Source of the DNA: Varibaculum cambriense
GTDB lineage: Bacteria > Actinomycetota > Actinomycetes > Actinomycetales > Actinomycetaceae
Direction of reading: 5' to 3'
Assembly: GCF_002848005.1 (NCBI RefSeq)
Contig: NZ_PKHX01000008.1
Span: forward strand, 52,842-116,841
Length of the DNA: 64,000 nt
The notes below the pieces were generated by a model. That model made no database searches. It was given only the letters and a program-made list of their open reading frames with translations, and had not been told where the DNA came from. A program made the translations under genes and the position numbers. This document shows positions 10,079-27,649 of the stretch, one piece after another. Position 1 is the first letter of the stretch, and the number at the start of each line of letters is the position of its first letter.

Positions 10079-10192
10079 GTGGCAGGAAGATACCAAGGCG
10101 AGCGCAGTCTTGGAACCAAAAGGGGCAGGCAGTCTGCCACCGCTACCACTAACCCGGTGATAGCGCGTAAAGCTGCCTGGCCCGCGCGCAAG
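10079..10192 (+). ncRNA. Double-pseudoknot RNA, unit 1 (leader of the 10198 gene)
   Basis: Helices in order: A GTGGCAG with CTGCCAC; B CCAAGGC/GTCTTGG closing loop GAGCGCA; C GGGGCAGGCAG with CTGCCTGGCCC (10 of 11 pairs), which straddles A' and so makes a pseudoknot; D CGCTA...TAGCG between A' and C'. The 3' tail CGCGCGCAAG can pair with the B loop (GCGC/GCGC). The tail ends 5 nt before the next ATG, so folding could affect translation of that gene. Confidence 0.75.
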
Positions 10193-10197
10193 AAACG

Positions 10198-10554
10198 ATG
10201 GAAGAAAACGTATATCCAAAACAATTAACTCCCCCTCAGCAGGCGCTAGCAATCGAGCTGGGCGGGTTGCTGCTTTTTTCTTGGAAGCAGACTGAACTGA
10301 ACTTTCCAGCCTTGGTCTTGGAGGCAGTATTTACCGCCACCGAAGATGGCTTGCAAATGGACCATGGCGCGTTCTCCGAAACTGATTCGATGGAATGGGA
10401 ACTGGGCGAGCTGGAAGAAGATATTCGCGCTCTGGCAGAAAGACTTTGGAAGAAAATGGGCAGAGACTGGAAAGTACTGGTCATCTCGATCGATCCGGTG
10501 ACTAGATTCTGTGAGCAAACCTTTTTCGGAAAGAAAACCTCGCGCCCTACATAA
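10198..10554 (+). CDS. Small acidic protein of unknown function
   Basis: 118 residues. An amphipathic N-terminus (LTPPQQALAIELGGLLLFSWKQ) is followed by an acidic middle (WELGELEEDIRALAERLWKKMG) and a beta-rich C-terminus; not recognised. ATG 10198 follows the conserved tail of RNA unit 1 with no clear Shine-Dalgarno sequence. The stop TAA lies inside the next 19-bp promoter (CTACATAAG), so the last residues SRPT are encoded by the promoter motif. Expression is probably controlled through the RNA leader. Confidence 0.6.
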   Translation: MEENVYPKQLTPPQQALAIELGGLLLFSWKQTELNFPALVLEAVFTATEDGLQMDHGAFSETDSMEWELGELEEDIRALAERLWKKMGRDWKVLVISIDPVTRFCEQTFFGKKTSRPT

Positions 10555-10559
10555 GAAGC
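10541..10559 (+). promoter_or_regulatory. 19-bp element promoter before RNA units 2-3
   Basis: CGCGCCCTACATAAGAAGC; +1 at 10560. It overlaps the end of the upstream gene. Confidence 0.7.
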
Positions 10560-10672
10560 GTGGCAGAAACGGACGGGGCTTGCACGGTCCTGACCCAAGG
10601 AACACTCGGTCTGCCACGGCGGGGGTGTCACCTCCCCTCGCTTGCTATAGCCGAGCGTTCCAAGTGCGCAAG
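10560..10672 (+). ncRNA. Double-pseudoknot RNA, unit 2 (first of tandem pair)
   Basis: A GTGGCAGA/TCTGCCAC; B CGGGGC/GTCCTG with loop TTGCACG; C GGAACACTCGG/CCGAGCGTTCC; D a GC-rich hairpin GCGGGGGTG...CACCTCCCC. The tail CCAAGTGCGCAAG carries GTGC, complementary to GCAC in this unit's B loop, where other units have GCGC in both places. It runs directly into unit 3. Confidence 0.75.
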
Positions 10673-10780
10673 GTGGCAGGTTGATGCAGGGCTGCGCAGT
10701 CCTGATCCAAAGGAGTAGCTGGTCTGCCACGGCGGGGTTTCCTTTCCCCCGCTACTTGATGCCAGCTGCTTCAAGCGCAA
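10673..10780 (+). ncRNA. Double-pseudoknot RNA, unit 3 (second of tandem pair)
   Basis: A GTGGCAG/CTGCCAC; B CAGGGC/GTCCTG with loop TGCGCA; C GGAGTAGCTGG/CCAGCTGCTTC (11 pairs, two of them G-U); D GGCGGGG/CCCCCGCT; tail CAAGCGCAAG. It has no promoter of its own and is joined to unit 2; an intrinsic terminator follows immediately. Confidence 0.75.
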
Positions 10781-10837
10781 GCCGCAGGGCATGGGTTTTT
10801 GTTGACTCTTCCCGTGCCTTGCGGCATTTTCTTTTTC
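10781..10837 (+). terminator. Intrinsic terminator after RNA units 2-3
   Basis: Stem GCCGCAGGGCATGGG/CCCGTGCCTTGCGGC followed by ATTTTCTTTTT. It abuts the conserved RNA tail. Confidence 0.85.
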
Positions 10838-10848
10838 CAAATTGGCCA

Positions 10849-10867
10849 TGCGCCCTACATAGGAGGC
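10849..10867 (+). promoter_or_regulatory. 19-bp element promoter before RNA unit 4
   Basis: TGCGCCCTACATAGGAGGC; +1 at 10868. It starts 12 bp after the terminator T-run, leaving no room for a separate upstream promoter. Confidence 0.7.
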
Positions 10868-10958
10868 GTGGCGGAGGAATCCAGGGCTAGCGCGGTCCTG
10901 ATCCCAGGGGCAATCGGTCGCCACAAAACTCCAATTGCCGGTTGCCCCAAGCGCAAAG
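10868..10958 (+). ncRNA. Double-pseudoknot RNA, unit 4 (leader of the 11017 gene)
   Basis: A GTGGCG/CGCCAC; B CAGGGC/GTCCTG with loop TAGCGCG; C GGGGCAATCGG/CCGGTTGCCCC (11 pairs with one wobble); no D hairpin; tail CCAAGCGCAAAG. About 58 nt of leader follow before the next gene. Confidence 0.75.
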
Positions 10959-11016
10959 TAGTAAGCTAAAAATAAGGCCAGGGAAAAGTCCCGGCTACCT
11001 GGAGTAAGGAGAAAAC

Positions 11017-11568
11017 ATGGCTGGATATTTTGGCCACTCAATGAGCAACAATGCGGTAGCGGCATACAGCGAGGGCCTGCGCCCAATAACGAAGTGGAAC
11101 AAGAAAGACTTAATCGAGGCCGCCTTAGAAACCGACTGCTGCGCATTTTCGCGCGAGGAACTACAAAGCTGCACTCTGGCCGCCTTGAAGAAGTTCTTGT
11201 TGGAGAATAAAGAATGGCATCATACTTCCAAGCACTTTAATGAAACTGATTTTTGGGGAATAGATGAAGATCGAGTTTCCAACCGGAAAACGCTAACCAA
11301 GATGCGCTCTTTTAAGTCGCCCAAGAAACAAGCTCCGACTGTAACGCACTTGGCGAAGATTCGCTTCGAGGAATGGGTAGGCACCAGAAACAACGGGGCA
11401 TATATGGAAAAACAGTGCCTAGCGATCATCAAGGGCAAGTGGGCATACACACTGAGCGGCAAGAAACATACCACCGCGAAACATTTCCTTCGAGCCTATA
11501 AGTACAAGGAAGCCCCAGAGGGCACCGAAGAAGAGTTTGCACAAATAACCCAAAAATACGACCTTTAA
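11017..11568 (+). CDS. Mobile-element protein of unknown function (SMSNNAVAAY family)
   Basis: 183 residues. The N-terminus GYFGHSMSNNAVAAYSEGLRPITKW resembles small proteins widespread in phages and plasmids of Gram-positive bacteria with no assigned role; this is from memory. The rest is basic and helical with a conserved-looking WVGTRNNGAYMEKQCLAIIKG segment. The start is ATG 11017 after AAGGAG. It forms a pair with the HTH gene 11 bp downstream, both behind RNA unit 4. Confidence 0.65.
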   Translation: MAGYFGHSMSNNAVAAYSEGLRPITKWNKKDLIEAALETDCCAFSREELQSCTLAALKKFLLENKEWHHTSKHFNETDFWGIDEDRVSNRKTLTKMRSFKSPKKQAPTVTHLAKIRFEEWVGTRNNGAYMEKQCLAIIKGKWAYTLSGKKHTTAKHFLRAYKYKEAPEGTEEEFAQITQKYDL

Positions 11569-11579
11569 GGAGCAAAACC

Positions 11580-11912
11580 GTGTTCGCTGATTTTTCTTTG
11601 CAATCATCCATAATGGGACTTACCTCCTCCGATCTGGCGCGTCGCTACGAAGTTGGAGAGCGCACTGCCCGCCGCTGGATTAGCGGTAAAGCCATGCCTC
11701 CCGAACCAGTAGCTGAGGACGTAGCAGAACTGTTTAGGTCTTTCCTGGAATCCCTTGGTTCCATGATTGAGACGCTGGACTTTGGCGGCGAGGTTTTTGA
11801 GCACGTCCTTAGTCCAGACGATCCGAACTATAAGCATCTTCGTCCGCTCGTGCAAGCCGCGTACCTGCTTTGCTGCCTGCGGGGAATCGAAACCGATATT
11901 TCTTTTTCCTGA
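11580..11912 (+). CDS. Small helix-turn-helix protein
   Basis: 110 residues from GTG 11580 (AAGGAG 7 nt upstream). LTSSDLARRYEVGERTARRWISGKAMPP near residues 13-39 is a clear helix-turn-helix of the transposase/regulator type. The remainder is helical with a hydrophobic LVQAAYLLCCL segment. It could be a DNA-binding regulator of this RNA/gene region or a replication accessory factor. Confidence 0.65.
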   Translation: MFADFSLQSSIMGLTSSDLARRYEVGERTARRWISGKAMPPEPVAEDVAELFRSFLESLGSMIETLDFGGEVFEHVLSPDDPNYKHLRPLVQAAYLLCCLRGIETDISFS

Positions 11913-11920
11913 CAATTCTT

Positions 11921-11939
11921 CGCGCCCTACATAGGTGGC
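11921..11939 (+). promoter_or_regulatory. 19-bp element promoter before RNA units 5-6
   Basis: CGCGCCCTACATAGGTGGC; +1 at 11940. Confidence 0.7.
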
Positions 11940-12044
11940 GTGGCAGTGCAATCGGGGATAGCACATTCCCGCACCAAGGAGCAAGCAGACCGCCACAGCG
12001 AGCTGCCTGGCTCGCAGATTACCAATACGCTTGTTCCAAGTGCA
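11940..12044 (+). ncRNA. Double-pseudoknot RNA, unit 5 (first of tandem pair)
   Basis: A GTGGC/GCCAC extended past one mismatch; B CGGGGA/TTCCCG with loop TAGCACA; C GGAGCAAGC/GCTTGTTCC (9 pairs); D GCGAGC/GGCTCGC; tail CCAAGTGCA. The loop GCAC and the tail GTGC are again matched, as in unit 2. A long open frame crosses this unit, but indels between copies are not multiples of three. Confidence 0.75.
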
Positions 12045-12149
12045 TGGCGAAAAGGTACAGGGCTCGCGCAGTCCTGGAGCAAGGAATACTCGGCTCGCCA
12101 CGCGGGGGAGCGATTACCCCCGCGCAACACTGGCTATTCCAAGCGCAAC
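12045..12149 (+). ncRNA. Double-pseudoknot RNA, unit 6 (second of tandem pair)
   Basis: A TGGCGA/TCGCCA; B CAGGGC/GTCCTG with loop TCGCGCA; C GGAATACTCGG/CTGGCTATTCC (10 of 11); D GCGGGGG/CCCCCGC; tail CCAAGCGCAAC. It follows unit 5 directly, without its own promoter, and ends against a terminator. Confidence 0.75.
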
Positions 12150-12208
12150 GCCGCAAGACCTGGCGATTTTCTTCCAATTTTTTCCAGGTCTTGCGGCACT
12201 TCCTTTTC
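12150..12208 (+). terminator. Intrinsic terminator after RNA units 5-6
   Basis: GCCGCAAGACCTGG/CCAGGTCTTGCGGC (14 perfect pairs), then CTTCCTTTTCT. Its layout matches the terminator after units 2-3. Confidence 0.85.
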
Positions 12209-12221
12209 TCAAGCAAATCCT

Positions 12222-12240
12222 CGCGCCCTACATAAGGATC
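12222..12240 (+). promoter_or_regulatory. 19-bp element promoter before RNA unit 7
   Basis: CGCGCCCTACATAAGGATC; +1 at 12241; 14 bp after the terminator. Confidence 0.7.
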
Positions 12241-12338
12241 GTGGCGGACTGACACAGGGCTTGCGCGGTCCTGGGTTTCCAAAAGGGGCAATCGGTCGCC
12301 ACAAATATCTCCATGCAGCCGGTTGCCCCACGCGCATA
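12241..12338 (+). ncRNA. Double-pseudoknot RNA, unit 7 (leader of the 12354 gene)
   Basis: A GTGGCG/CGCCAC; B CAGGGC/GTCCTG with loop TTGCGCG; C GGGGCAATCGG/CCGGTTGCCCC; no D hairpin; tail CACGCGCATAG. Here six bases of the loop (TGCGCG) match the tail (CGCGCA). The tail lies 5 nt before the ribosome site of the next gene. Confidence 0.75.
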
Positions 12339-12353
12339 GACTTGGGAGGGGTT

Positions 12354-12548
12354 TTGGATACCAAAGTAGAAAAGCTGCTGGCGGGACTTAAGCAGCTAGA
12401 ACAAGAAGAGTATTCCCAGTTGTATCTGGCGATTCAGCGCAGTTTCGGGGATGGGCGCCAATCAGCGGCCCACCTTGGAGCAGCGAGAGCATACGGCAAG
12501 GCCGCAAGGCTGGCCAAAGACTATTTCGGCTCGTCCCCGGAAAAATGA
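12354..12548 (+). CDS. Small helical protein behind RNA unit 7
   Basis: 64 residues from TTG 12354, chosen because GGGAGGGG lies just upstream and because upstream sequence is structured RNA. The protein is mostly helical (TKVEKLLAGLKQLEQEEYSQLYLAIQRSFG) and of unknown function. The longer open frame reaching back to 11940 is judged non-coding. It overlaps the end of the convergent gene by 28 bp. Confidence 0.55.
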   Translation: MDTKVEKLLAGLKQLEQEEYSQLYLAIQRSFGDGRQSAAHLGAARAYGKAARLAKDYFGSSPEK

Positions 12549-12979
12549 AAAGTAGTCCCATCCCAGATGCAATCGGCCTTGGTTTTATGGCCATAACAGG
12601 TCAGCACCTTGTTTTTTGGCGGGGCTTTGGCGGTGGCAAAAAAGTTGAAGTCATCATTCTTAGTAGTGACCGCGAGTAGAGATTCTTTCATGCCTGCTTT
12701 GGTGAAGGCTGCGTCCTCATTCGGGCAGTCAGTCTTTTTACCCAGGGTTATTTTTTCGCCTTGCTTTTCGCACTTTCTGAACTCTAGGGTGTCCTTGGTA
12801 AGGCAGGTATAGTCTTTGCCCGTCTGCCAGGCTGCGACTATTGCCGGGTTGTTGGAAACTTCGATCTCTTTTTGCTTGTCCATGTAGAAGTTGGACAAAA
12901 ATGCCAGCGCGGCTAAAGCAAGAGTTACAACCACGCCAAGAATCAACGCGGGGGCTGCCAGTTCTAGTTCTTTCTTCAT
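12521..12979 (-). CDS. Membrane-anchored cysteine-containing protein (paralogue of 24733)
   Basis: 152 residues. One N-terminal membrane helix (ALILGVVVTLALAALAFL) is followed by an exported domain with five cysteines. The pattern YTCLTKDTLEFRKC...ITLGKK...VLTCYG...CIWDG matches the protein at 24733 (YSCLEKGTAKIVEC...VKLGKV...LSCLVAG...CIFDG), so the two are paralogues on one element. It is the last gene of the coupling-protein operon. A possible role as a transfer-channel or exclusion protein is inference from location. Confidence 0.7.
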   Translation of the reverse strand: MKKELELAAPALILGVVVTLALAALAFLSNFYMDKQKEIEVSNNPAIVAAWQTGKDYTCLTKDTLEFRKCEKQGEKITLGKKTDCPNEDAAFTKAGMKESLLAVTTKNDDFNFFATAKAPPKNKVLTCYGHKTKADCIWDGTTFHFSGDEPK

Positions 12980-12997
12980 CTCGCTAGGGGCTATGCG

Positions 12998-14452
12998 TCA
13001 GCCCCAAGCTCCGCTGTAAATCGTGGGTTCAATACCAAGGTTGTTGGAAAAATCCACCCCAATATCTCTAAAACCTTGGGAAGTGGCGCAAGCGGCGGTA
13101 AGCCCAAAATCTACTGTTTCATCTCTGGATTGGGCCGGCTGCATATAAAGGCCTTTTAGCCGGGCGCAAAGCGGGCCAGCATTTTCTACTGGCGGGCATA
13201 AGTCTTTAATGCTCCCCTCTTTGCCGCTAGCGCATTTAACATTTAGGTTCTCTAGGTCGGCAGTTGATTTGTAGTCGGCGGTAAAGTAGTCGGTCCAGCT
13301 GGCCATGCCGATCCGGTTCAAGGCCGGGTGGTCGCCCCATTCTTTACGGATTTCTTTGAACTGGCGGTATAGACCATCCCTCGCGATATGCTGACTGGCT
13401 CCCGCCTCTGATAGGTTCGGCCCGTACAAAAATAGGCAAAACCTGGGGGCATCGAAAAGCCCTGCCCGGTTCATTAAGCGCAAGTATCTACTTATTTTTT
13501 GGTGGGTGCGCTCTGGATTATCGGTGAGTGTAGTTTCCACCATCACCAGCCGTCCATCTTTGATAAAACCTCCGTCGGCGGTTACTGCGAACACTCCGGT
13601 GCCGTCACTTTTTGCGCCTGCCCCCGTTCCAAGCAGCATATCCATATTGCAAATGCCTTCCGGGATAACCGCGTCAAATATGGATGCTCCGCGAAGCAAG
13701 AACTCGGTGGTGGCTATATCGTGCCTAATCCCGGTGGATACTCCCCCGGCCTTTCCCAGTGGGTAGGCTCTCCAAAACGCGGGGGCTGGAATATTTTTTG
13801 CTCTTTTCATCCAACGCGAAGGCGTTCTAGCTCTAATCACCGTTAAATCTTTTGACGTAGATACCGCTTCCCCCAGCGGGTTCGGGGCAATAGAGATCAT
13901 GGTGTGGGCAAACAAGTATTTAAGGAGCGTGCCAAGATGAGGCACATAAGTTAAGGCCTTTAGTTGGCCCAGCGTTACGTTCTTGTATCCCCAAAGAACT
14001 GAGCCAACTTTGGCCACATCTAGCGCTCTAGAATCCAGGTAGCTAACGACTTCGTGGCTTTCAGCTTCTATTGGCTTCGCCATGCCACTTACCTTGCCGA
14101 TAAACCCGGAGTCCTTTAAGGCTTTTAGGTCTTTATGGGTTAGAAAAACAGTGCCCGATCCTTTAACAAACGGGGTGTATATCGGGTCGGGGCGAGTGCC
14201 CCATGCCCAATGTTTTAACCAGTAATCTTTAGGGGATGGCTCGAAAAGATCATCAAAGCCCGCGTCGGGGGCGGGAGCTTGGTCTTGCTCAACTTCGTTA
14301 CTACCGGGGGTAGCATCGGCTACGCCTGCGCTGGAGCCAGGGGCTCCAACCTGCTCGGCGCTGTCCTCAAACAGGCTGTCAAGGAAGTTTTCCTCAAACA
14401 GGTCGGAAAAGCCGTCACCGTCGCCGCCAAAAAGGCTACTGAAGCTATCCAT
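12998..14452 (-). CDS. Replication-relaxation family protein
   Basis: 484 residues from ATG 14452, overlapping the stop of the upstream coupling-protein gene (ATGGATAG). An acidic N-terminus contains the repeated linker APGSSAGVADATPGSNEVEQ. The central to C-terminal region has GIRHDIATTEFLL, then VTADGGFIKDGRLVMVE and QKISRYLRL, the order seen in the replication-relaxation family found beside conjugation genes in Actinobacteria and Firmicutes. It probably helps open or nick DNA at the origin of replication or transfer. The family call rests on motif order remembered, not on a search. Confidence 0.6.
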   Translation of the reverse strand: MDSFSSLFGGDGDGFSDLFEENFLDSLFEDSAEQVGAPGSSAGVADATPGSNEVEQDQAPAPDAGFDDLFEPSPKDYWLKHWAWGTRPDPIYTPFVKGSGTVFLTHKDLKALKDSGFIGKVSGMAKPIEAESHEVVSYLDSRALDVAKVGSVLWGYKNVTLGQLKALTYVPHLGTLLKYLFAHTMISIAPNPLGEAVSTSKDLTVIRARTPSRWMKRAKNIPAPAFWRAYPLGKAGGVSTGIRHDIATTEFLLRGASIFDAVIPEGICNMDMLLGTGAGAKSDGTGVFAVTADGGFIKDGRLVMVETTLTDNPERTHQKISRYLRLMNRAGLFDAPRFCLFLYGPNLSEAGASQHIARDGLYRQFKEIRKEWGDHPALNRIGMASWTDYFTADYKSTADLENLNVKCASGKEGSIKDLCPPVENAGPLCARLKGLYMQPAQSRDETVDFGLTAACATSQGFRDIGVDFSNNLGIEPTIYSGAWG

Positions 14453-16859
14453 TCGGAACCTCAATCTTTTGAGTACGCATGGTAAAAGATGGAAGCGGAT
14501 CGCGGTGCAAAGTAGTCTTTACCGCACACTGAAAACGCCCCAGTAACTTAAAATCATCCTTAATCCACGGGTCAGATTCTAAGGCGAATTGTTCCGCCAG
14601 GTTCTCTGCCACTTCACTGTTAGTGGTACGGAAAGCCACCAAGGTTGTTAACCCGAAGAACGAGGTTCTAACCCGCTCAGGGAGTTGTTCGGCTTGCTGA
14701 GTAGCATACGCTACGCTCACCCCGTAAGACCGGCCTTGATCCTTAAACCAAGTAATAAGAGCCGGGTCTGAGCCAGCCAAAAGACTCAACTCATCGGCAA
14801 GCAGATAGACCTTGCCTTGCTTTACCCCGCCTACGCTATCTCCATAACCGGAAAGGTTAGCGGCAATAAAAGAACGCAGGCAAAACGCGCCCATCGAAGT
14901 AATAAGTTTCGAGGTCGAATCCGCGCCCGTAGACTGCGTTTGCCCCGGCCCGGTATAAATAACCAGCACCCGAGATTTATCCACCGCCTTCTTAAACGTC
15001 ATAGCATTTTCACCTGGATAGAACGCATGGGCAAGCGGAATCAGCGCAGTAATCTTTGTGCCCGCCGAGTTCGCCCGCTCTAAGAAAGCATTACCGCGAA
15101 GATCAAACAATTCACTCATGGCTTTGACTGCCCGCTCTAGTCCTTTGTTTTCTGGGCTACGGGCAAGCCGTTCTTTTAACGCTTCAAAAAGTGCTTTGGC
15201 AGCCACCTGACCGCCTTCTCCTTGACAGGTTAGAATCCCGGCGCAATCAATTGCTGACTTGTAGGCAGAAATCTTAAACTCCAAAGACTTGTTCGCCGCT
15301 TCAATATCTTCTGGCCTAGTTTCAAAACCAAGCGCGAGTGCTGCTCGAATATCTGCGCCGTTCCTTGCCCCAATCGAGCCTTCATCCATTGCATACGTCA
15401 AGGCTTCGACCATCTGGTTTGCCCGCTCGTAAGAATCATGCGCTCCGGCAAAGAAATCAATCTGTTCAGCACCTGGGAAAGTTGGCGCAATATAAGACAC
15501 GTCCCAACCGGCGTTCTTTGCCAGCAGGTACAAAATCCTTGCACCATCGTTTAGTTTCGGCTCGAAAATAATGATCGTGGTGCGCCCATCATTCTTGGAA
15601 AGCAAGTGCGCGTAGTATTGGCGAAGCAGCTCAGACTTACCACTACCCGCGTCCCCAAGTAGGGCAAGACCTCCTTGCATATCATCACTCGATAAATAAA
15701 CCGGCGACCCATCTTCGCTAATACCTGCCATAAAACCATTGGCCGGGTTCTTTAACACCTGGGGCACCGCACGTTCAGCAGTCTTCGATCCTTTAGCTTT
15801 AGAACCTTTCGGCGGCACAATCAGTTGGCACATTTGCGCACAAGTAAGCATAAGGGTGCGTTTTCTAAACGGGTAAGCATTAAGCAAGGAAGAATCTCTT
15901 GCTTGCACCATCATCCCGTTTTCGCCTTCTTCCATCGTGGTGCCGCCTTTTGGTTTTATTAGCGGCGGAGTCCTGTATGGTGGCCTCGGCAAAAATCCCC
16001 TAGCTGCACACCTTTTAATCCGGGACAAGTGGGTTGGTAAAAACCCAAAATAGGCAAGGGCTAAGGCTAAGGCGCTAAGGAGCGCGGCGGCTATCTGGAT
16101 TTTAATATCAGCCCCGAGTCGGTACGGGAAAGAAAGCAGGGAAAATAAATAGTTGAGAGACGGAATGCCCGCTAACCAGGCAAGGCTAGCGACAAACGGC
16201 ACCCACCAATAAGACACCCTGGTTGGTCGCTTGGCTTCTACCCTAAAAGAAAAACCAGGAAGCGAAGATATAACCTGGGTACAAAGATTCTTCAAGTCTT
16301 CGGTTGATCCATAGCCCCCGGCATAGACAGTTACCATGAAGTTAGTTCGAGAAGTATCAAGTGCGCTTTTCATGCGGTGCCCAATAAAGTTTCCCTCCCA
16401 CCTATCACGCAAGGTAGTTTCAAACGGACGCGGGGCGCGGAAAGAAAACGCCACCCAATCCCCCTCCTCTAAGGCCGGGGCAATCGCAGAGATCATGGCC
16501 GCAAAGTCCACCCCGCCTTGCGGGTTAGCACTCATAGCTCCTTTACGGGCGGGCGTAAAGCCGTGAGCATAGTAGGGCCTAGATAAATCAAGACCGTCTG
16601 TAACTTCGCACCTAGCCCCAATAAGTTCACAGGTGGAAGTTACGGCGCGAGCAGATTTTTTCGACCCGCAAACAATATAGGATGTAACGCCTTCTTTTTC
16701 TTTTGCCACCACGAAAGCGCCCGCGCCTGCGTGACTGTACGCGCCTGGCAATTTGGTTTGCACTAGGTTGCGGGTAGCACCCGAGAGAGCGGAGGCTACT
16801 TGAGAGTAGTCCTCGATCTGTCCACCAGTGGGTGAAAGAATAAAAGTCTGGTTTTGCAC
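14445..16859 (-). CDS. Conjugative coupling protein / VirD4-TraG-like ATPase
   Basis: 804 residues. A cytoplasmic N-terminal domain is followed by two membrane segments near residues 225-285 (WWVPFVASLAWLAGI; IQIAAALLSALALALAYFG), Walker A GDAGSGKS near 415, Walker B VYLLADELSLL near 697, and the motif VSVAYATQQAEQLPERVRTSFFGL typical of TraD/VirD4/TraG. Coupling proteins bring DNA to the conjugation channel. The GTG start has AAGGAG 5 nt upstream. It leads a four-gene operon with the replication-relaxation protein and the small membrane protein. Confidence 0.82.
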   Translation of the reverse strand: MQNQTFILSPTGGQIEDYSQVASALSGATRNLVQTKLPGAYSHAGAGAFVVAKEKEGVTSYIVCGSKKSARAVTSTCELIGARCEVTDGLDLSRPYYAHGFTPARKGAMSANPQGGVDFAAMISAIAPALEEGDWVAFSFRAPRPFETTLRDRWEGNFIGHRMKSALDTSRTNFMVTVYAGGYGSTEDLKNLCTQVISSLPGFSFRVEAKRPTRVSYWWVPFVASLAWLAGIPSLNYLFSLLSFPYRLGADIKIQIAAALLSALALALAYFGFLPTHLSRIKRCAARGFLPRPPYRTPPLIKPKGGTTMEEGENGMMVQARDSSLLNAYPFRKRTLMLTCAQMCQLIVPPKGSKAKGSKTAERAVPQVLKNPANGFMAGISEDGSPVYLSSDDMQGGLALLGDAGSGKSELLRQYYAHLLSKNDGRTTIIIFEPKLNDGARILYLLAKNAGWDVSYIAPTFPGAEQIDFFAGAHDSYERANQMVEALTYAMDEGSIGARNGADIRAALALGFETRPEDIEAANKSLEFKISAYKSAIDCAGILTCQGEGGQVAAKALFEALKERLARSPENKGLERAVKAMSELFDLRGNAFLERANSAGTKITALIPLAHAFYPGENAMTFKKAVDKSRVLVIYTGPGQTQSTGADSTSKLITSMGAFCLRSFIAANLSGYGDSVGGVKQGKVYLLADELSLLAGSDPALITWFKDQGRSYGVSVAYATQQAEQLPERVRTSFFGLTTLVAFRTTNSEVAENLAEQFALESDPWIKDDFKLLGRFQCAVKTTLHRDPLPSFTMRTQKIEVPNG

Positions 16860-19865: not shown

Positions 19866-22034
19866 TTAGCGCCTCCGGGGCTTGCGGGTTTTGGATTTGC
19901 CGAAGCGACGTTTTTTCTTTTTTGCCTCCGGTTCTTTTCTGGTGATGAATGCGTTCTTTCCGGTGACGGCGTAAAGTATCCGATCTAAGGGTTCGGCTAC
20001 CGGGGGCAAGCCTTCACATAGGATTCCGCTTGATAGCCGGTTGTAAATGGTTTTGTTGTAGGGCACGGCACCGGCAAAAGTTGATGCTTGGTCAAACATT
20101 TCCTCGAAGTCTCTTAGGTCCTCGGGGGTGTTATGAGCGTGTGATTGAGCGATTAGGGTAAAGATTTTTGCTGCCTTTACCCCTCTGGCTCGGTATTGGT
20201 GTAGCCGTTCCAGCAAGTTGTTGATAGATTCTGGTGAATCCTCGGTGGCTCCTACTCCCCAAATGTTCTCGTCTTTGATTAGCAAGGGGATCAGGAAGTT
20301 TTCAAACAGCTTGGTGGTGTCGTATTTTTCTGAAATTTGCGTATCGACTATCACCAGGTCGGATACTTCTCTGGCCTCACTGAGCGCGTTTTGGTAAACC
20401 TCGGGGGTTACCTGGGTGGGATCGGATAGCTCGGAAGGCGGTGCGGCGATTAGCGCGAACGCTAACGGCTCTAAGTGTGGTGGCCGGTCTTTGTCGAGGG
20501 CTGGCGGGGTGATGATTGCGCCTCTGCCCCCTTCAGGTAGGGCATCAAAAATGGTGGGTACATTTAGGGTGCGCAGTTTGGTGCGTATGTCGCCTTGTCC
20601 CCGGTTCGCATCTATTAGGGTGATGCGCATATCGGGGCATAGCCTGCCTGCACGTTGGGCTAAATGTATGGAGGTGGTAGTTTTGCCTACTCCCCCCTTG
20701 GCTCCGAACACGATGATGGTAGGACACCCGCCGTTTGTAGTATGCGCTATGGCAGCGGGAGCTATGGGTGGGCCAGGAGCGGGGCGTGCCGGCTCGGCTG
20801 CCTCCATCGTGGGCTTCCAGTTAGTCTCGGCTGGCTGTTCTTCCCAACTTGGCACGTTCTCAGGTTCGCTGGCAGGTTCGGGGTCCCACTTCGGGGCCTG
20901 CTCGGGGGCTTCATATTGCTCGGCACCCCCTGCGCCAGGGACGGGGTCTCCATATCCCGGCTCGGGAAGGCTTAGGTCTATATCGTCATAAAGATTGCCT
21001 TGCGGGGCAGGGCTAGAAAACGGCATTGCGTCGGTGGGTAGATCGAAGCTGGCCGGGTTTGGCACGGGGGCGGGGGCCTGATATTGCTCGGCGCCCCCTG
21101 CGCTGGAGCCGGGGGCTCCATCTCGCTCGGCTGCGTCTACACCAGGTAGGTCGAAGCCGGTTTGTCCGGGCAGCAGGCTGTCGTTTTGAGGCTGACCTAT
21201 TCCGGGCAGGTCATAGCCAGATTGGCTTGTTTCTTGCTCGGCTAAGCCTGCGCTACTGCCAGGGGCAGTATTTGGAGGAAGGTCATAGCCAGATTGAGTT
21301 GGAACTTGCGCGGGGGCTGGCACGTCGTTTACACCAGGAAGGCCGAAGCTAGATTGACTGCCAGCAGGTGCAACCGATCCGGGCATGGCTGATCCTTCTG
21401 GTGCGGGCAAGGGGCTTAGCTCCGGCTGCGTAACTGGCAGCGTGGCGGTAGGGGCTTCGCTACTAACACTGCCGGGGGTGCCTATTCCTGGAAGGTCAAA
21501 ACCAGTTGCCGGGGCCGTCTCGGGGGTGTCTACGCCAGGCAGCTCAAAACCGGTTGCCGGGGTAGGTTCTTGCTCAACTTCGTTACTACCGGGGGTAGCA
21601 TCGGCTACGCCTGCGCTGGAGTCGGGGACTTGGGCTTGCTCGTCTATTCCAGGCAGGGCAAAGTTATCTTCGGCTACAAACAGGCCGGAAAAGTCTTCAC
21701 TTGGCTTTAGCGCGTCTACTTCAATACCCATTTCGGAAAGTGCGCCGTGGATTTCTTCTTCACCCTCGCGATAGGTAGCACCCTCAATGCCAGATAGACT
21801 GCCGGAGCCTACGATCAGTACCGGGCCAAGTTTTTCTACCGCGAGTTTCACCCATTTATCAGCCGGGAAACCATAAGTCTCTTGGTTTTTGATGATCGAG
21901 AACGCTAAAGCATCGGTTAGCGGAGGGGATGCTTTGCGGGCCGTGTCCTTAAAACTATTCCCGCTAATAACTTCGTAGTCTGCCTGTAGTTTTTGGGCTA
22001 TCTCGGGCAGGTTGAAAATAAAAACTTTGTCCAT
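19866..22034 (-). CDS. ParA/MinD-like ATPase with long repetitive linker
   Basis: 722 residues. The N-terminal domain (about 1-130) is unknown. A linker of some 280 residues repeats GFDLPG-type peptides (at least eight, such as GFELPGV, GYDLPGI, FGLPGV) interleaved with APGSSAGxAEQ units. The C-terminal ATPase has deviant Walker A KGGVGKTTT near 435, DANRGQGD, and VIVDTQ for Walker B, then a very basic tail (KKKKRRFGKSKTRKPRRR). ParA-type ATPases position DNA or secretion/conjugation machinery. The start is ATG 22034, 19 bp from the element promoter; it heads a six-gene operon. Confidence 0.75.
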   Translation of the reverse strand: MDKVFIFNLPEIAQKLQADYEVISGNSFKDTARKASPPLTDALAFSIIKNQETYGFPADKWVKLAVEKLGPVLIVGSGSLSGIEGATYREGEEEIHGALSEMGIEVDALKPSEDFSGLFVAEDNFALPGIDEQAQVPDSSAGVADATPGSNEVEQEPTPATGFELPGVDTPETAPATGFDLPGIGTPGSVSSEAPTATLPVTQPELSPLPAPEGSAMPGSVAPAGSQSSFGLPGVNDVPAPAQVPTQSGYDLPPNTAPGSSAGLAEQETSQSGYDLPGIGQPQNDSLLPGQTGFDLPGVDAAERDGAPGSSAGGAEQYQAPAPVPNPASFDLPTDAMPFSSPAPQGNLYDDIDLSLPEPGYGDPVPGAGGAEQYEAPEQAPKWDPEPASEPENVPSWEEQPAETNWKPTMEAAEPARPAPGPPIAPAAIAHTTNGGCPTIIVFGAKGGVGKTTTSIHLAQRAGRLCPDMRITLIDANRGQGDIRTKLRTLNVPTIFDALPEGGRGAIITPPALDKDRPPHLEPLAFALIAAPPSELSDPTQVTPEVYQNALSEAREVSDLVIVDTQISEKYDTTKLFENFLIPLLIKDENIWGVGATEDSPESINNLLERLHQYRARGVKAAKIFTLIAQSHAHNTPEDLRDFEEMFDQASTFAGAVPYNKTIYNRLSSGILCEGLPPVAEPLDRILYAVTGKNAFITRKEPEAKKKKRRFGKSKTRKPRRR

Positions 22035-22091: not shown

Positions 22092-22110
22092 CGCGCCCTA
22101 CATGGGGAGG
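22092..22110 (+). promoter_or_regulatory. 19-bp element promoter before the first ArdA-like gene
   Basis: CGCGCCCTACATGGGGAGG. The start codon is 28 nt downstream of the predicted +1 and has its own AAGGAG, again favouring a promoter over a ribosome-binding role. Confidence 0.65.
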
Positions 22111-22138: not shown

Positions 22139-22972
22139 ATGGACAGCAAACAAACCCCGCCAACAATACAAGGCATGAGCAATTTCGAGGCGAAGCATCC
22201 GCGCGCAAAAGACGGCAAATTTGCTGAAAAGTATCGGGCTGAGTCCGGGCTGACTTTGGAGCTGGAAAAACGTTTAGAAGATCTAGATACCCCGAAAGTG
22301 TTTGTGGACTGCGTAGATTGCAGGCGCAAAGGTATAGTCACCGGCGAGTGGGTGAATATTACCGACACCGAAGGGCTTACACCGGTTGATGTTTGTCTGA
22401 TCCGCGAGCACGAAAATCTGGAAGTATCCGATACTGACGGAGAGCTATATATCGCTCCGAAAACCGTTGAGGAAGCGAGCCAGTGGGGCAAGGCTTATAG
22501 CCAGGCCAAAGAAAATGGACATGAGAAACCTTTTAAGGCTTGGGTAAATGAATGCGGGATTGTTGATCCGAAAGAAGCCCTAGAGTTCGAGAGCCGTTAC
22601 CAAGGCGAATACGATTCCTGGGAAGACTTCGCCTCCGAATACGCGTACCAGTCTGACGGGCTCGACGTTTTGACCCGCTATTTTGACTATGACAGTTTCG
22701 CCCGCGACCTAAAACTCAACTGTGAGGTTGAGAAAACCGCTGATGGGGTTGTTGTTCGTAACTTCGATGATGACCCGGACGGCAAGGTAGCAGTTAAGGC
22801 GAGTAGTTTTGAGGACTATGCACGGAGCGTAGCTCAAGAAACCGTTATCGAGCCGGAACACTACAACTGGTTGGACGCTTACTGCGACTACGGAAAACTT
22901 GGTGAGGACTTAAAGAACGACTATTCTTCAGCCGAATCGGAAAACGGCGTGTACGTGTTCCGCGACTATTAA
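22139..22972 (+). CDS. ardA: Tagged ArdA-type antirestriction protein
   Basis: 277 residues, strongly acidic. Residues 13-38 are the shared tag (MSNFEAKHPRAKDGKFAEK..ESGL). The C-terminal half has the ArdA pattern ESRYQGEYDSWEDFASEYAY and YFDYDSFARDL, then WLDAYCDYGKLGEDL. ArdA mimics bent DNA and blocks type I restriction enzymes, which protects an element entering a new host. ATG 22139 has AAGGAG; the second ATG at 22175 is where related tag proteins begin. It is followed by a second ArdA-like gene. Confidence 0.75.
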   Translation: MDSKQTPPTIQGMSNFEAKHPRAKDGKFAEKYRAESGLTLELEKRLEDLDTPKVFVDCVDCRRKGIVTGEWVNITDTEGLTPVDVCLIREHENLEVSDTDGELYIAPKTVEEASQWGKAYSQAKENGHEKPFKAWVNECGIVDPKEALEFESRYQGEYDSWEDFASEYAYQSDGLDVLTRYFDYDSFARDLKLNCEVEKTADGVVVRNFDDDPDGKVAVKASSFEDYARSVAQETVIEPEHYNWLDAYCDYGKLGEDLKNDYSSAESENGVYVFRDY

Positions 22973-22974
22973 CC

Positions 22975-22993
22975 CGCGCCACACGAGGTAGGC
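22975..22993 (+). promoter_or_regulatory. 19-bp element promoter before the second ArdA-like gene
   Basis: CGCGCCACACGAGGTAGGC then ATG 22994; the weakest match to the TACRTR box, but the spacing is exact. Confidence 0.55.
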
Positions 22994-23494
22994 ATGAGCG
23001 TAGAGAACTTTGGACCTTCCCCGGCAGAAAAGGCTGAATCTGAGCGTCAGACGGCACTAAGTGCCTACAGGGTAGCGCGTGGGATTAAAGACGGCGAGGA
23101 TGTGGAAGATTTTGACCTGATTTATCAAGGCCGGTATGACAGTTGGATCCACTTTGCCGAGGCTTACGCGTACCTTTACGAGGACTTCCAAGCGATGATA
23201 GACCATTTCGATTATGGCGCGTTCGAGGAAGAACTACGCAGCTTGTGCGAGGTAGAGGAAACCAATACCGGCGTAACTATCCGCGACTTTGACCTGGACG
23301 GCGGGAAGAAGCCTATCCACGCCAAGAGCTTTTCTGACTACGCGCGAAAGATAGCCAAAGAAACCATCATCCGTCCAATGGACTACTTGCAGTTGGATTC
23401 CTATTGCGACTACGAAGCGCTGGCCGAGGACTTAAAGAAAAGCTATTTTTCGTGCCCGGCAGAAAGCGGCATTTTCATTTTCTGGGATATTTAA
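22994..23494 (+). CDS. ardA: ArdA-type antirestriction protein (untagged)
   Basis: 166 residues, the usual ArdA size, and acidic. LIYQGRYDSWIHFAEAYAYLYEDF, HFDYGAFEEEL and YLQLDSYCDYEALAEDLKKSYF parallel the C-terminal half of the preceding protein, so the two arose by duplication and diverged. It lacks the NFEAKHPR tag. Two ArdA versions could cover different restriction enzymes. Confidence 0.75.
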   Translation: MSVENFGPSPAEKAESERQTALSAYRVARGIKDGEDVEDFDLIYQGRYDSWIHFAEAYAYLYEDFQAMIDHFDYGAFEEELRSLCEVEETNTGVTIRDFDLDGGKKPIHAKSFSDYARKIAKETIIRPMDYLQLDSYCDYEALAEDLKKSYFSCPAESGIFIFWDI

Positions 23495-24593: not shown

Positions 24594-24599
24594 TTACCG

Positions 24600-24643
24600 C
24601 CAGGGGTAAGGGGTTCTTCGGGATTCCTTGCCCCTGGCTTTTT
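24600..24643 (+). terminator. Intrinsic terminator of the surface-protein gene
   Basis: CCAGGGGTAAGG/CCTTGCCCCTGG followed by CTTTTT. The next element promoter begins 3 bp later. Confidence 0.85.
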
Positions 24644-24645
24644 CA

Positions 24646-24664
24646 CGCGCCCTACGTGGTAGGC
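24646..24664 (+). promoter_or_regulatory. 19-bp element promoter before a 21-codon frame
   Basis: CGCGCCCTACGTGGTAGGC then ATG 24665. It is identical to the copy 68 bp downstream. Confidence 0.65.
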
Positions 24665-24730
24665 ATGGCAGGTATCTATACCGCTGCCGGAACTTGTATT
24701 AAACGCTCTCGCCCGCGCCCTACGTGGTAG
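24665..24730 (+). CDS. Possible 21-residue peptide between two promoters
   Basis: ATG at the exact promoter spacing; reads MAGIYTAAGTCIKRSRPRPTW and stops within the next 19-bp motif. The final RPRPTW is encoded by that motif. It could be a leader peptide for the next gene or a chance frame left between duplicated promoters. Confidence 0.3.
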   Translation: MAGIYTAAGTCIKRSRPRPTW

Positions 24731-24732
24731 GC
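24714..24732 (+). promoter_or_regulatory. 19-bp element promoter before the 24733 gene
   Basis: CGCGCCCTACGTGGTAGGC then ATG 24733. Confidence 0.7.
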
Positions 24733-25167: not shown

Positions 25168-25183
25168 TGAATGAAAAACACCC

Positions 25184-25202
25184 CGCGCCCTACATGGGAA
25201 GT
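25184..25202 (+). promoter_or_regulatory. 19-bp element promoter before the excisionase-like gene
   Basis: CGCGCCCTACATGGGAAGT then ATG 25203. GGAAGT before the start is the same as at tnpA. Confidence 0.7.
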
Positions 25203-25379
25203 ATGGGTAAAAAAGAAGAAATCTATACCGCGAAAGAAATAGCGGAAATGTTCAAAGTCTCTGTCTATGCAGTCCGCACTTGGGCGGCTAGAGGATTGCC
25301 AGGGGCTGTAAAGATCGGGAAGTCATGGCGGTTTACCACCGAAACCGTGGACTACCTAAAGTTTTCGGGGGTGGTATAA
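25203..25379 (+). CDS. Excisionase-like helix-turn-helix protein
   Basis: 58 residues: EIYTAKEIAEMFKVSVYAVRTWAARGLPGAVKIGKSWRF is the winged MerR/Xis-type (HTH_17) fold used by recombination directionality factors and small regulators. The size is typical of Xis. The tyrosine integrase 5 kb away makes an excisionase role plausible; a plain regulator is possible. The next gene starts immediately after its stop. Confidence 0.7.
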   Translation: MGKKEEIYTAKEIAEMFKVSVYAVRTWAARGLPGAVKIGKSWRFTTETVDYLKFSGVV

Positions 25380-26084
25380 ATGCGCGCAAAAATCATTAGT
25401 GCAGTAAACGATCCGGCACTTTATCCGTGGTCGCCGCCCTCTGAGGATGTGTTCGTAAGCGGGAAAGTAGTTGTGCCTTTCAAAGGTAAGGTCGCCCGCG
25501 TACCACACCGATACCCGGTTGTAGCGGTAGGATCGAACGCTTGCGTGGATGTGATGAAAAACAAGTTTAATCAGCGGTTAGAGGGAATCCAGATGCCGTG
25601 GGTTGCCTTGCGCGCCACCGTAAGAAACATGGCTATCGGGGCTATGCCGCTCATGTCGCCTAGAGGGTATGTGCCTGCTACCCCGTTTGAGAAGACTGAT
25701 GCGGTAACTAAAGTTTGGGTGTCATTTTTCGACCAGGCACACCTTGACGCTTTGGATTCTACTGAGCCGGGATATACCAGGCTAAAACTTAGTAGTGATA
25801 AATATTTGCTCACCTTAGACCGTGACGGGCAAAAGATAGATGAGTTCTTTGTGTACGAAGCGGATAAAGGTTACTTGACGGATGGGCTATCCCCTATTGA
25901 GTTTCCGATTACCCAACGCCAGATTTTTGAGTATCTAAAGAGCATAGAGAACATTGCTCCGTTACTTCCTCTCAAGTATAGCTGGCGGGCTTTGGCAAGT
26001 AACCATACAAAAATCACCAACCGGATCGCTAAGAACACTTGGATGTACCGCGAGCCGAATCTGGAAGGAGAAAAATGTGAATGA
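25380..26084 (+). CDS. Unknown protein, possibly gamma-glutamylcyclotransferase-like fold
   Basis: 234 residues. YPVVAVGSNACVDVM near residue 45 and FDQAHLDALDSTEPGYTRLKL near 120-140 recall the YGSN and LDxxEG..Y elements of the GGCT/AIG2 fold, but this is a weak resemblance. It is adjacent to the excisionase-like gene without a gap and overlaps the next small gene. No other clue to function. Confidence 0.5.
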   Translation: MRAKIISAVNDPALYPWSPPSEDVFVSGKVVVPFKGKVARVPHRYPVVAVGSNACVDVMKNKFNQRLEGIQMPWVALRATVRNMAIGAMPLMSPRGYVPATPFEKTDAVTKVWVSFFDQAHLDALDSTEPGYTRLKLSSDKYLLTLDRDGQKIDEFFVYEADKGYLTDGLSPIEFPITQRQIFEYLKSIENIAPLLPLKYSWRALASNHTKITNRIAKNTWMYREPNLEGEKCE

Positions 26085-26319
26085 GGAAAAACTGCGCCTG
26101 TTATTTAGCGTGCGAGATAGCGGGCTAGGGGTAGCCTGCCAGGGCAAGACGCTGCGTAATACCTGCGCCGGGCTATACGGATTCAAGGACAACTATTTTG
26201 TGTATAACAAGGATGAATGGGTGGAGCGGCTAGATAAGGTTTTGGATGAAATGAATACCCTTCGTATCCAGCTGGATCAGATGGAAGAAACCATTTGCGA
26301 CCTCAGAAAGATTATCTAG
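26077..26319 (+). CDS. Small protein with C-terminal coiled coil
   Basis: 80 residues from GTG 26077 (GGAG 7 nt upstream), overlapping the previous stop by 8 bp. The C-terminal 35 residues (ERLDKVLDEMNTLRIQLDQMEETICDLRKII) form a coiled coil; the N-terminal half contains three cysteines. Unknown. The last 25 nt are partly repeated about 84 bp downstream (26377-26408). Confidence 0.5.
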   Translation: MNEEKLRLLFSVRDSGLGVACQGKTLRNTCAGLYGFKDNYFVYNKDEWVERLDKVLDEMNTLRIQLDQMEETICDLRKII

Positions 26320-26410
26320 TTTCGGACAAGTCGCAACCCCACAGATTTTAAGCCACCAGGGCTTGAAACCCACCGTTTACGACCTCAGAAAATTGATCTA
26401 GTCCCGAATG

Positions 26411-26446
26411 TAAAACAACCCTAAGCTGAGCTTAGGGTTGTTTTAC
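26411..26446. terminator. Bidirectional intrinsic terminator
   Basis: AAAACAACCCTAAG, CTGA loop region and CTTAGGGTTGTTTT form a long perfect stem with A and T runs on either side. It separates the + strand xis-like operon from the convergent minus genes. Confidence 0.85.
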
Positions 26447-26482
26447 TGTAACGTACTCTAACATTGTTACAGTTACAGTACG

Positions 26483-26749
26483 CTACCCCAGGTACTGCCC
26501 CCAAGGGCTACTTTCCGTGCGACGGCGAGCGTATTGTTCCGGAGCGCGAAAAGCATTGATCGCGGTCTTTAAGTCCCGCACCCGCACCTTAAACAACGCT
26601 GCCAGATCGGTAAGAGTCTGCCCATCTATTTGTGCCTCGCCCCCGCTCCGCAGCCCATAGCAATCTATCACCGCCTGCATATGTGCTTGCCAGCGGGAGA
26701 GTTCTTCGTCCAGTTCTTCGATACGCGCATCCAAGTCTTCGTTAGCCAT
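26483..26749 (-). CDS. Small helical protein coupled to the Panacea-like gene
   Basis: 88 residues from ATG 26749, overlapping the upstream stop by 8 bp. The N-terminal coiled coil (ANEDLDARIEELDEELSRWQAH) is followed by a segment like a helix-turn-helix (QTLTDLAALFKVRVRDLKTAI). With the Panacea-like neighbour it may form a two-gene toxin-antitoxin or regulatory unit; neither part is proved. Confidence 0.55.
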   Translation of the reverse strand: MANEDLDARIEELDEELSRWQAHMQAVIDCYGLRSGGEAQIDGQTLTDLAALFKVRVRDLKTAINAFRAPEQYARRRTESSPWGQYLG

Positions 26750-27509
26750 TTTGCGCCGCCAGGTATGCCCGCTCGATTTGGCGCAGCCGAATCCGCTCTT
26801 CCTGCTTTTTGAGGTTGTTACGCTCCCTAATTTCCGGGGTGAATCGCCGCCTAGCATTGTAGGGCTTGTAGTATCCCATAGCTACGGCAACCCCTGCCCA
26901 GTCTTCACGATCTAGGCCGTCTACTAGCTCGTCTTGCATGAGCGGGATTTGCTGCTCTAGGGCGCGAATTATCGCTAGGGTGCCAAGCGGGCTGCCCTCC
27001 CCAACTGCTTCACCTAACCTGCTTACAAGTTCGGTTACTTCTTCCATGTTTTCGCTGAGCACGTCTTGGGCGTTGGCAAGGGAGGTATCGTGATCCTTAA
27101 AGATTAGCCGGGTAAAAGCCTCACCGAATGCTCCGTATCCTACGGTGCCAGATTTAAGACCATCCAAGCGGGCTAAAACTTCCTTCAGTCCGTCTACGTC
27201 TTGCAGGCTGTGCGCGTCCAGTACGGTATCTAGCGTGGCCTTGCGGTCTTCGCCTAGACAGTCATTATCAAAGTCCCGGATTAGCGGGTAGAAGCCTTTC
27301 TTGCCTTCGATATAGGTCCAAAACTTCGGTATCCGGTAGCCATCCTTAGATTTAGTCACCGGGTAGTCGAACATCGGTACCCAGTCCCAGGCCAGCGAGT
27401 AACCTTGGGCAAGAATAAGTAGTTGTTCTAGTCGATAAATATCGGTTTCCGGCAGTTTTTCTAAAATGTAACTTGCACCGCTTAACGGTGAGATTTTATT
27501 TTTGCTCAT
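26742..27509 (-). CDS. Panacea (DUF4065)-like protein
   Basis: 255 residues. The N-terminal region ASYILEKLPETDIYRLEQLLILAQGYSLAWDWVPMFD has the layout of the Panacea/SocA domain (helix, KLQKLLYYAQ-like helix, then a GxPLF-like turn). Panacea domains serve as antitoxins for diverse toxins and occur widely on phages and plasmids. The C-terminal part is helical and ends in a basic coiled stretch. It begins with ATG 27509 at the element promoter; a copy of the structured RNA lies just upstream. Confidence 0.5.
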   Translation of the reverse strand: MSKNKISPLSGASYILEKLPETDIYRLEQLLILAQGYSLAWDWVPMFDYPVTKSKDGYRIPKFWTYIEGKKGFYPLIRDFDNDCLGEDRKATLDTVLDAHSLQDVDGLKEVLARLDGLKSGTVGYGAFGEAFTRLIFKDHDTSLANAQDVLSENMEEVTELVSRLGEAVGEGSPLGTLAIIRALEQQIPLMQDELVDGLDREDWAGVAVAMGYYKPYNARRRFTPEIRERNNLKKQEERIRLRQIERAYLAAQNG

Positions 27510-27528
27510 GCCTACTATGTAGGGCGCG
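27510..27528 (-). promoter_or_regulatory. 19-bp element promoter of the Panacea-like gene
   Basis: Minus strand CGCGCCCTACATAGTAGGC then ATG 27509. Confidence 0.7.
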
Positions 27529-27550
27529 GGGATTTTGCGTGGAAAAGAAA

Positions 27551-27649
27551 ATGCGCCTTGGGTATGCCCGCAACTTTGTCAGGATCGTGGCGAACGGGCA
27601 CCCCCCTTGGGTCAGGACCAGCGCTTAGCCCTGGTCTAGGTACCGCCAC
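27551..27649 (-). ncRNA. Double-pseudoknot RNA, unit 8 (minus strand)
   Basis: A GTGGCG/CGCCAC; B CAGGGC/GTCCTG with loop TAAGCGCTG; C GGGGGTGCCCG/CGGGCATACCC (10 of 11); tail CCAAGGCGCA followed by TTTTCTTTT. The separate location 15 kb from the other copies, with all helices kept, is strong evidence for function. It lies between two element promoters, upstream of the Panacea-like gene. Confidence 0.75.

What the first reader, a model, noticed from the sequence alone, without database searches (positions are those of the whole stretch)
10079..27649. A new-looking family of double-pseudoknot RNAs, eight copies in one mobile element
Seven copies lie between 10079 and 12338 and one on the minus strand at 27551-27649. 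Each is about 90-115 nt with the order A-B-B'-C-A'-(D-D')-C'-tail. Helix A (GTGGCR with YGCCAC) and helix C (about 11 bp) interlock as an H-type pseudoknot. Helix C pairs in all eight although its sequence differs: GGGGCAATCGG/CCGGTTGCCCC, GGAACACTCGG/CCGAGCGTTCC, GGAGTAGCTGG/CCAGCTGCTTC, GGAATACTCGG/CTGGCTATTCC, GGAGCAAGC/GCTTGTTCC. Such co-change is what selection on RNA structure produces. Indels between copies break any reading frame. I cannot match it to a family I know.
Basis: partly seen in the sequence, partly recalled or inferred. Interest (0 to 1): 0.95.

Follow-up and report, generated by a model that had tools for sequence, protein, structure and literature searches.

The report
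New pseudoknotted RNAs in a mobile element
A mobile piece of DNA, probably from a human-associated bacterium, appears to encode eight copies of an undescribed, knotted RNA, some as free small RNAs and some at the front of messenger RNAs; the fold looks well supported, but what it does is not known.

Summary
In all, 216 of 224 helix cells pair; for helix C only 2 of 40320 pairings of the strands score as high as the real one, itself included. A model of seven units finds the eighth at E = 9.5e-9. No Rfam family reaches its threshold. Public protein calls that read through unit-1 DNA of relatives are compatible with helix C, with changed letters.

New anatomy: a shared box, GCGCCCTACATA, begins exactly 18 nt before six units and 18-19 nt before nine ATGs, so RNAs should start at helix A. 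Units occur as terminated tandem pairs and as single leaders. One downstream gene pair occurs elsewhere without box or unit. The host is probably Varibaculum. Searched genomes gave no second DNA copy, without a positive control. Function is unproven; I favour a binding module, leaders acting in cis and free pairs in trans. No expression data were available.

The parts
10061..10072 (+). promoter-like box GCGCCCCACATA; begins 18 nt before u1
10079..10192 (+). unit u1, leader of the 118-aa gene; D hairpin present; loop GCGC with tail GCGC
   Evidence: relatives read through it in protein calls
10198..10554 (+). 118-aa gene after u1; relatives named Varibaculum; its last codons overlap the box of u2
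10542..10553 (+). box of u2
10560..10672 (+). unit u2, first of tandem pair 1; loop GCAC with tail GTGC
10673..10783 (+). unit u3, second of tandem pair 1, no box of its own
10781..10837 (+). terminator-like stem of tandem pair 1: 15 bp, then a T-rich run
   Evidence: -31.9 kcal/mol, z -7.15
10850..10861 (+). box of u4
10868..10958 (+). unit u4, leader without D
11017..11568 (+). 183-aa gene, first of a pair that occurs elsewhere without unit or box
11580..11912 (+). 110-aa gene with a weak helix-turn-helix match (below Pfam cut-off), second of the pair
11922..11933 (+). box of u5
11940..12043 (+). unit u5, first of tandem pair 2; loop GCAC with tail GTGC
12044..12151 (+). unit u6, second of tandem pair 2, no box
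   Evidence: not listed, I think because its hit overlaps that of u5
12149..12212 (+). terminator-like stem of tandem pair 2: 14 bp plus 2, then a moderately T-rich run
   Evidence: -28.9 kcal/mol, z -7.63
12223..12234 (+). box of u7
12241..12338 (+). unit u7, leader without D; nearest relative of u4 (92% over 65 core positions)
12354..12548 (+). small gene after u7; TTG start behind GGGAGGGG inferred by eye
   Evidence: 12357-12548 scanned, no family
27548..27649 (-). unit u8, without D; followed by a T-rich stretch
   Evidence: found by the model built without it, E = 9.5e-9
27656..27667 (-). box of u8
27516..27527 (-). same box before the leaderless-type 255-aa gene 26742-27509

Best explanation
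This is a new family of structured RNAs carried by a conjugation-type mobile element of a Varibaculum-like actinomycete. Box-bearing units start at the predicted first transcribed base of an element-specific promoter and fold into an A/C H-type pseudoknot, locked further by pairing the B-hairpin loop with the 3' tail. I think the fold is a binding module for a trans-acting factor (protein or ribonucleoprotein). Single units at the 5' ends of mRNAs (u1, u4, u7) act in cis as tags for that factor. The terminated tandem pairs (u2-u3, u5-u6), which contain almost nothing but units, act in trans by binding or titrating the same factor. Shown: the repeats, the fold by comparison, the box and its fixed spacing, the terminator-like stems. 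Inferred: transcription, the start site, the binding, the factor and the titration.
For: Fold; relatives. The box begins exactly 18 nt before GTGGC in 6 of 6 box-bearing units, and 18-19 nt before an ATG-started ORF at 9 further sites, so transcripts should begin at helix A. The two tandem pairs end in strong stems with T-rich tails and contain little but units, so the unit itself should be the payload. One downstream gene pair occurs in two other genomes without unit or exact box; the shared DNA begins 16 nt after u4, so the unit is a separable module, not part of that gene's own control. Unpaired bases are mostly variable apart from A-rich joints, while hairpin B, with a G-U pair in 7 of 7 aligned units, is the more conserved in sequence; that fits recognition of B better than a metabolite pocket (inference).
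Against: No RNA data were available. No candidate factor was identified. The model found no convincing copy in 34 GTDB pattern loci, in 213, 396 and 6 genomes (overlapping sets), in 6 genomes or plasmids or in 41 viral loci that encode relatives of the 183-aa protein; none of these had a positive control. u8 is a single unit before a gene that has its own box, which fits neither class cleanly. The loop-tail change (GCAC:GUGC) occurs only in u2 and u5, nearest neighbours, so it may be one event. For helix A alone the swap test is weak: 2304 of 40320 re-pairings do as well.
Confidence: 0.4

Rival explanations
1. 5'-end shield: the knot at the very first base blocks 5'-end-dependent decay (pyrophosphohydrolase, RNase J or E) and so stabilises the transcripts; tandem copies add protection, as tandem exonuclease-resistant RNAs do in flaviviruses (recalled).
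For: 6 of 6 box-bearing units lie at the predicted +1; the gap from the tail pairing to the next start codon varies from 10 nt (u1) to 62 nt (u4), so 5' position, not distance to the ribosome site, is the common feature (counted); the fold varies more in sequence than in pairing.
Against: The tandem small RNAs hold little but units, so they would be shields with nothing to shield; u3 and u6 are internal; nine other box sites lead into an ORF and carry no unit.
Confidence: 0.25
2. Cis-acting processive antiterminator or leader switch of the kind of HK022 put or the EAR element (recalled).
For: Leader position; strong terminator-like stems after the tandem pairs, upstream of the next gene.
Against: No + strand terminator-like site between u1, u4 or u7 and its gene in the scan; u4 and u7, after the stems, have boxes of their own, so readthrough is not needed.
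Confidence: 0.12
3. Anti-defence or decoy RNA expressed early after transfer, beside the ArdA genes.
For: Boxes of the same kind lie near two ArdA-like genes at 22139-23494; terminated pairs suit a free decoy.
Against: No known defence-linked RNA was matched in Rfam; PADLOC gave only two weak hits (E 0.0009 and 0.006) in the 10 element proteins tested.
Confidence: 0.1
4. Riboswitch or self-cleaving ribozyme.
For: Compact pseudoknot of about 100 nt; tandem and leader positions occur in both kinds (recalled).
Against: Few conserved unpaired bases; no Rfam match at E <= 5 to a riboswitch or ribozyme; strand order differs from the HDV fold, where the 5' strand of P2 precedes hairpin P3 (recalled).
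Confidence: 0.08
5. Structured DNA rather than RNA: recombination sites, single-strand promoters or cassette ends.
For: The units lie between genes in a mobile element.
Against: 20 of 224 helix cells are G-T on the unit's strand against 4 A-C (many cells share columns, so this is a lean, not a proof); one G-T pair in B is in 7 of 7 aligned units. Six units sit at a fixed distance from a box, and boxes lie on both strands.
Confidence: 0.05

Closest known systems
Exonuclease-resistant RNAs (xrRNA) of flaviviruses and plant viruses
   Same: compact pseudoknots, loop-to-tail pairing, sometimes in tandem (recalled)
   Different: viral RNAs of eukaryotes, different junction (recalled); here 5'-terminal by prediction and bacterial; compared only through Rfam
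Leader and decoy-RNA circuits (EutV with EutX/Rli55, CsrA with CsrB)
   Same: the same RNA module in mRNA leaders and in free small RNAs (recalled)
   Different: simple hairpins there; no factor is known here
HDV-like ribozymes
   Same: about 90 nt, pseudoknotted, with an optional hairpin (recalled)
   Different: strand order differs from the recalled HDV order, and no HDV family match in Rfam
Type III toxin-antitoxin RNAs (ToxI, TenpI, CptI)
   Same: tandem pseudoknotted repeats before a gene (recalled)
   Different: their repeats are far shorter (recalled); no toxin family among the downstream proteins tested
TnpB omega-RNA
   Same: structured RNA near an IS200/IS605 pair (7373-8910)
   Different: eight copies, six with their own boxes, over 1 kb past the tnpB end, one copy some 15 kb beyond the others on the other strand

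Membership tests
Any Rfam 15 family | score at or above the family's gathering threshold | tested here: not met
   (whole window): only a tRNA at 42656-42740; (E <= 5): five and one weak hits, all below gathering scores; the best two lie on the terminator stems
HDV-like ribozyme | nested double pseudoknot with the P2 5' strand before hairpin P3 (definition recalled) | tested here: not met
   strand order of the units read; no Rfam match
Type III toxin-antitoxin | short repeat RNA followed by a ToxN/TenpN/CptN-type toxin (recalled) | tested here: not met
   no toxin family in the proteins after u1, u4, u7 and u8 in Pfam and PHROGs or, except the small protein after u7, which was not given, in PADLOC
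TnpB omega-RNA | overlaps the 3' end of tnpB and the element end (recalled) | tested here: not met
   tnpB ends at 8910 and the first unit starts at 10079
Riboswitch | ligand-dependent change of structure | not testable with these tools
   needs in-line probing
Exonuclease-resistant RNA | stops a 5'-3' exonuclease | not testable with these tools
   needs an RNase J assay
Leader/decoy RNA circuit | leader and free RNA bind the same factor | not testable with these tools
   the anatomy fits; binding was not tested

The most novel reading that the evidence does not exclude
A new class of mobile-element RNA: an interlocked knot formed from the first transcribed base, driven by an element-wide promoter box, used both as a free tandem regulator and as a plug-in 5' module placed before unrelated cargo genes, so that the element controls its genes by RNA titration of one factor.
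Probability: 0.2. Interest if true: 0.85.

Novelty: new variant of a known kind. Interest (0 to 1): 0.6.

Why it matters
A repeated RNA with a defined fold, predicted start sites, terminators and a shared promoter-like box is ready for direct test (RNA-seq, SHAPE, pull-down). If the leader-plus-free-copy circuit is real, it would show a mobile element running its own RNA-based control network with one interchangeable part. My impression, not searched, is that conjugation-type elements of human-associated Actinomycetaceae are little studied.

Tried and rejected
Viral contigs: a box-plus-unit pattern gave 0, a leaderless-box pattern 0, the 804-aa ATPase no relative, the 118-aa protein 0. A unit pattern gave 36 stretches; the best reached 21.1 bits with only local matches, taken as chance because they had been selected for those letters. 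The 183-aa family gave 41 viral loci; none has a model match at E <= 1. GTDB contigs: 34 loci with the unit pattern, best 20.2 bits, against 83-97 bits for the six training units listed and 37 bits for the held-out u8; taken as chance. RNA model in genomes: 0 of 213 at E <= 0.001, 0 of 396 at E <= 1e-4, 0 of 6 at E <= 0.05 and 0 of 6 genomes or plasmids at E <= 0.1; the sets overlap. In one search, 2 of 3 genomes gave E 0.014 and 0.088, taken as chance. None had a positive control, and the two large runs used stricter filters. Distantly related conjugation elements gave nothing below E = 0.48. No DNA match in plasmids or phages (one search used other element DNA, not units). The exact box occurs in 3 of 165 loci held (L093, L159, L161; L159 and L161 overlap); the one in L093 was not followed.

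Considered and rejected: coding sequence (no common peptide by eye, stops in u3 and u7), recombination sites, type III antitoxin, omega-RNA, HDV ribozyme.

Papers: five searches, listings and abstract openings only; no paper was opened. 'Not described' rests on those five searches and on Rfam.
Full report
The finding. Eight repeats were described as double-pseudoknot RNAs. I read the sequence and found all eight where stated, with the stated strand order.

Structure. MAFFT aligned u1-u7 usably; with u8 included its ends were misaligned (in one search I had also given u8 a wrong range), so u8 was held out. On u1-u7 the structure A (columns 1-7 with 58-64), B (16-21 with 29-34), C (46-56 with 98-108) and L-L' (24-27 with 111-114) gave 96.4% of 194 cells paired. 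Of 28 pairs, 13 change on both sides; the covariation score was 0.367 against 0.181 shuffled, with 0 of 500 shuffles as high; further pair types were 21 against 17.6 (17 of 500 as high); partners slid by 1-3 columns paired at 33-41%. L-L' is new here: the B loop GCRC pairs with the tail GYGC after C'. Its only variants are u2 and u5 (GCAC with GTGC), each other's nearest relatives at 77%, so this may be one event; and GCGC is its own complement, so the unvaried copies prove nothing.

All eight. By segments set by hand, 216 of 224 cells pair: 20 are G-T, and 8 do not pair (4 A-C, 2 G-A, 1 G-G, 1 C-C). Re-pairing the strands of different units in all 40320 ways reaches the observed total in 2304 (A), 720 (B), 2 (C) and 1440 (L) cases. 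So C carries most of the evidence and A the least. These controls ignore relatedness. A covariance model of u1-u7, with only B and C as pairs, finds u8 at E = 9.5e-9, the next, non-unit, hit being at 0.13. u8 also keeps A (7 of 7) and L-L' (4 of 4), which that model did not contain as pairs.

Outside the window. The protein search with the 118-aa gene gave 20 relatives. In 3 of 20 (P0053, P0056, P0059) the predicted protein starts upstream and reads through the unit-1 DNA. Back-translation leaves degenerate letters. At the place expected for helix C from the codons, certain/possible/impossible pairs are 3/8/0 in P0053, 6/5/0 in P0056 and 6/5/0 in P0059. This place ranks first of 3325 registers in P0056 (96 have no impossible pair) and first of 2125 in P0059 (3 have none); P0053 does not discriminate (30 of 3175 have none, and the five listed at the top are others). 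One position is G-G in the window, G with C or T in P0053, and T-A in P0056, a change on both sides between relatives. So unit 1 exists in other genomes, and its helix C is compatible with the fold there; the DNA itself was not seen.

Promoter box. GCGCCCYACATA with up to 2 mismatches occurs 28 times on the two strands, against 9.6 expected; all 14 with at most one mismatch lie within 4119-27667. One search lists 21 sites within 2 mismatches of the T form. In 6 it begins 18 nt before the GTGGC of a unit. In 6 it begins 18 nt before the ATG of an ORF (7373, 22034-, 24665, 24733, 25203, 27509-), and in 3 it begins 19 nt before one (4111-, 4148, 23516). In 6 neither holds (5333-, 9295-, 22093, 29004-, 42019, 52530); the sites at 22093 and 5333- match the box well and lie before genes, so the rule is not without exception. 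Of 12 relatives of the 255-aa protein, the four with N-terminal extensions all read APYI(G/V)GM there, which is what the box and spacer encode in that frame. Of 20 relatives of the 118-aa protein, 14 end in RPT, which is what the box of u2 encodes at that place; 4 end in NER, 1 in VAG and 1 in RHI; this is suggestive only. G207 has two exact boxes on one contig without a unit. The simple scan found no sigma-70-type -35/-10 pair in 9900-12700, so a special factor may read the box (inference).

Modules. u2-u3 and u5-u6 are tandem pairs with one box, each followed by a 14-15 bp stem and a T-rich tail. u4 and u7 (92% alike) precede genes, so the region reads twice as box-unit-unit-terminator-box-unit-gene. 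In both pairs the first unit uses GCAC:GUGC and the second GCGC:GCGC, which would limit wrong pairing between neighbours (inference; two cases only).

Separable from its gene. The 183-aa and 110-aa genes after u4 have relatives side by side in G208 and G207 (about 55% and 64% identity), 2 of the 5 genomes with a match to the 183-aa family among 213 searched. The shared DNA begins at window 10974, 16 nt past u4. In the six stretches fetched there is no model match below E = 1.9 and no exact box; the upstream DNA was read for G208. The unit is thus a plug-in, not this operon's own leader.

Element and host. The window holds a conjugation-type ATPase (14445-16859; 25-29% identical to plasmid proteins, many annotated as conjugative transfer, of Arthrobacter, Curtobacterium, Bifidobacterium and others), a protein with a ParA-type domain (19866-22034), two ArdA-like proteins and a tyrosine integrase (29816-30910). 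The 118-aa gene's relatives include proteins named from Varibaculum cambriense and uncultured Varibaculum. A gene outside the element (32934-34133) is closest, at 58-60%, to five genomes that were also among the 213 of the Actinomyces israelii genome's family. So the host is probably Varibaculum. No whole genome was held for the window.

Mechanism. The free pairs contain little but units, so the unit itself should do the work; the leaders stand at the predicted 5' end but at varied distances from the start codon (10 nt for u1, 62 nt for u4; counted). I therefore favour a binding module with cis copies in leaders and trans copies in the tandem RNAs (0.4), over a 5'-end shield (0.25). No step after transcription is shown, and transcription itself is inferred.

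Noticed in passing
window 9032-9900: Dense direct and inverted repeats of TGGCACTTTT / AAAAGTGCCA (two 189-nt copies at 79%, many inverted pairs), flanking an AT-rich stretch; looks like iterons of a replication or partition site just upstream of the RNA units.
   Followed up: partly
window 4119-27667: Element-wide box GCGCCCTACATA driving apparently leaderless genes on both strands, including two divergent boxes that share GGGCGCGCCC at 4119-4140.
   Followed up: partly
window 7355-8910: IS200/IS605-type TnpA and TnpB pair; the same box begins 18 nt before the tnpA start. A second TnpB-like gene lies at 2-907.
   Followed up: no
window 24647-24732: Two boxes 68 nt apart; the first would drive a leaderless 21-codon ORF.
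   Followed up: no
window 11940-12548: A 202-codon frame opens at the 5' GTG of u5 and runs through u6, the terminator and u7 into the small gene; probably chance.
   Followed up: no
P0047 (relative of the 118-aa gene): Its C-terminus seems to run from the start of the u2 box straight into letters matching the u2 tail and u3 start, suggesting a relative with most of u2 missing, or an assembly collapse (by eye).
   Followed up: no
L145 7253-8195 and L148: The 183-aa and 110-aa gene pair sits in other genomic surroundings in G208 and G207; in L145 a GGTCAGGGAAAAGTCCCGG stretch like that of the window (10974 on) is kept before the ribosome site.
   Followed up: partly
L093 839-850: One exact GCGCCCYACATA in a contig of G043, which also carries a distant relative of the transfer ATPase.
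   Followed up: no
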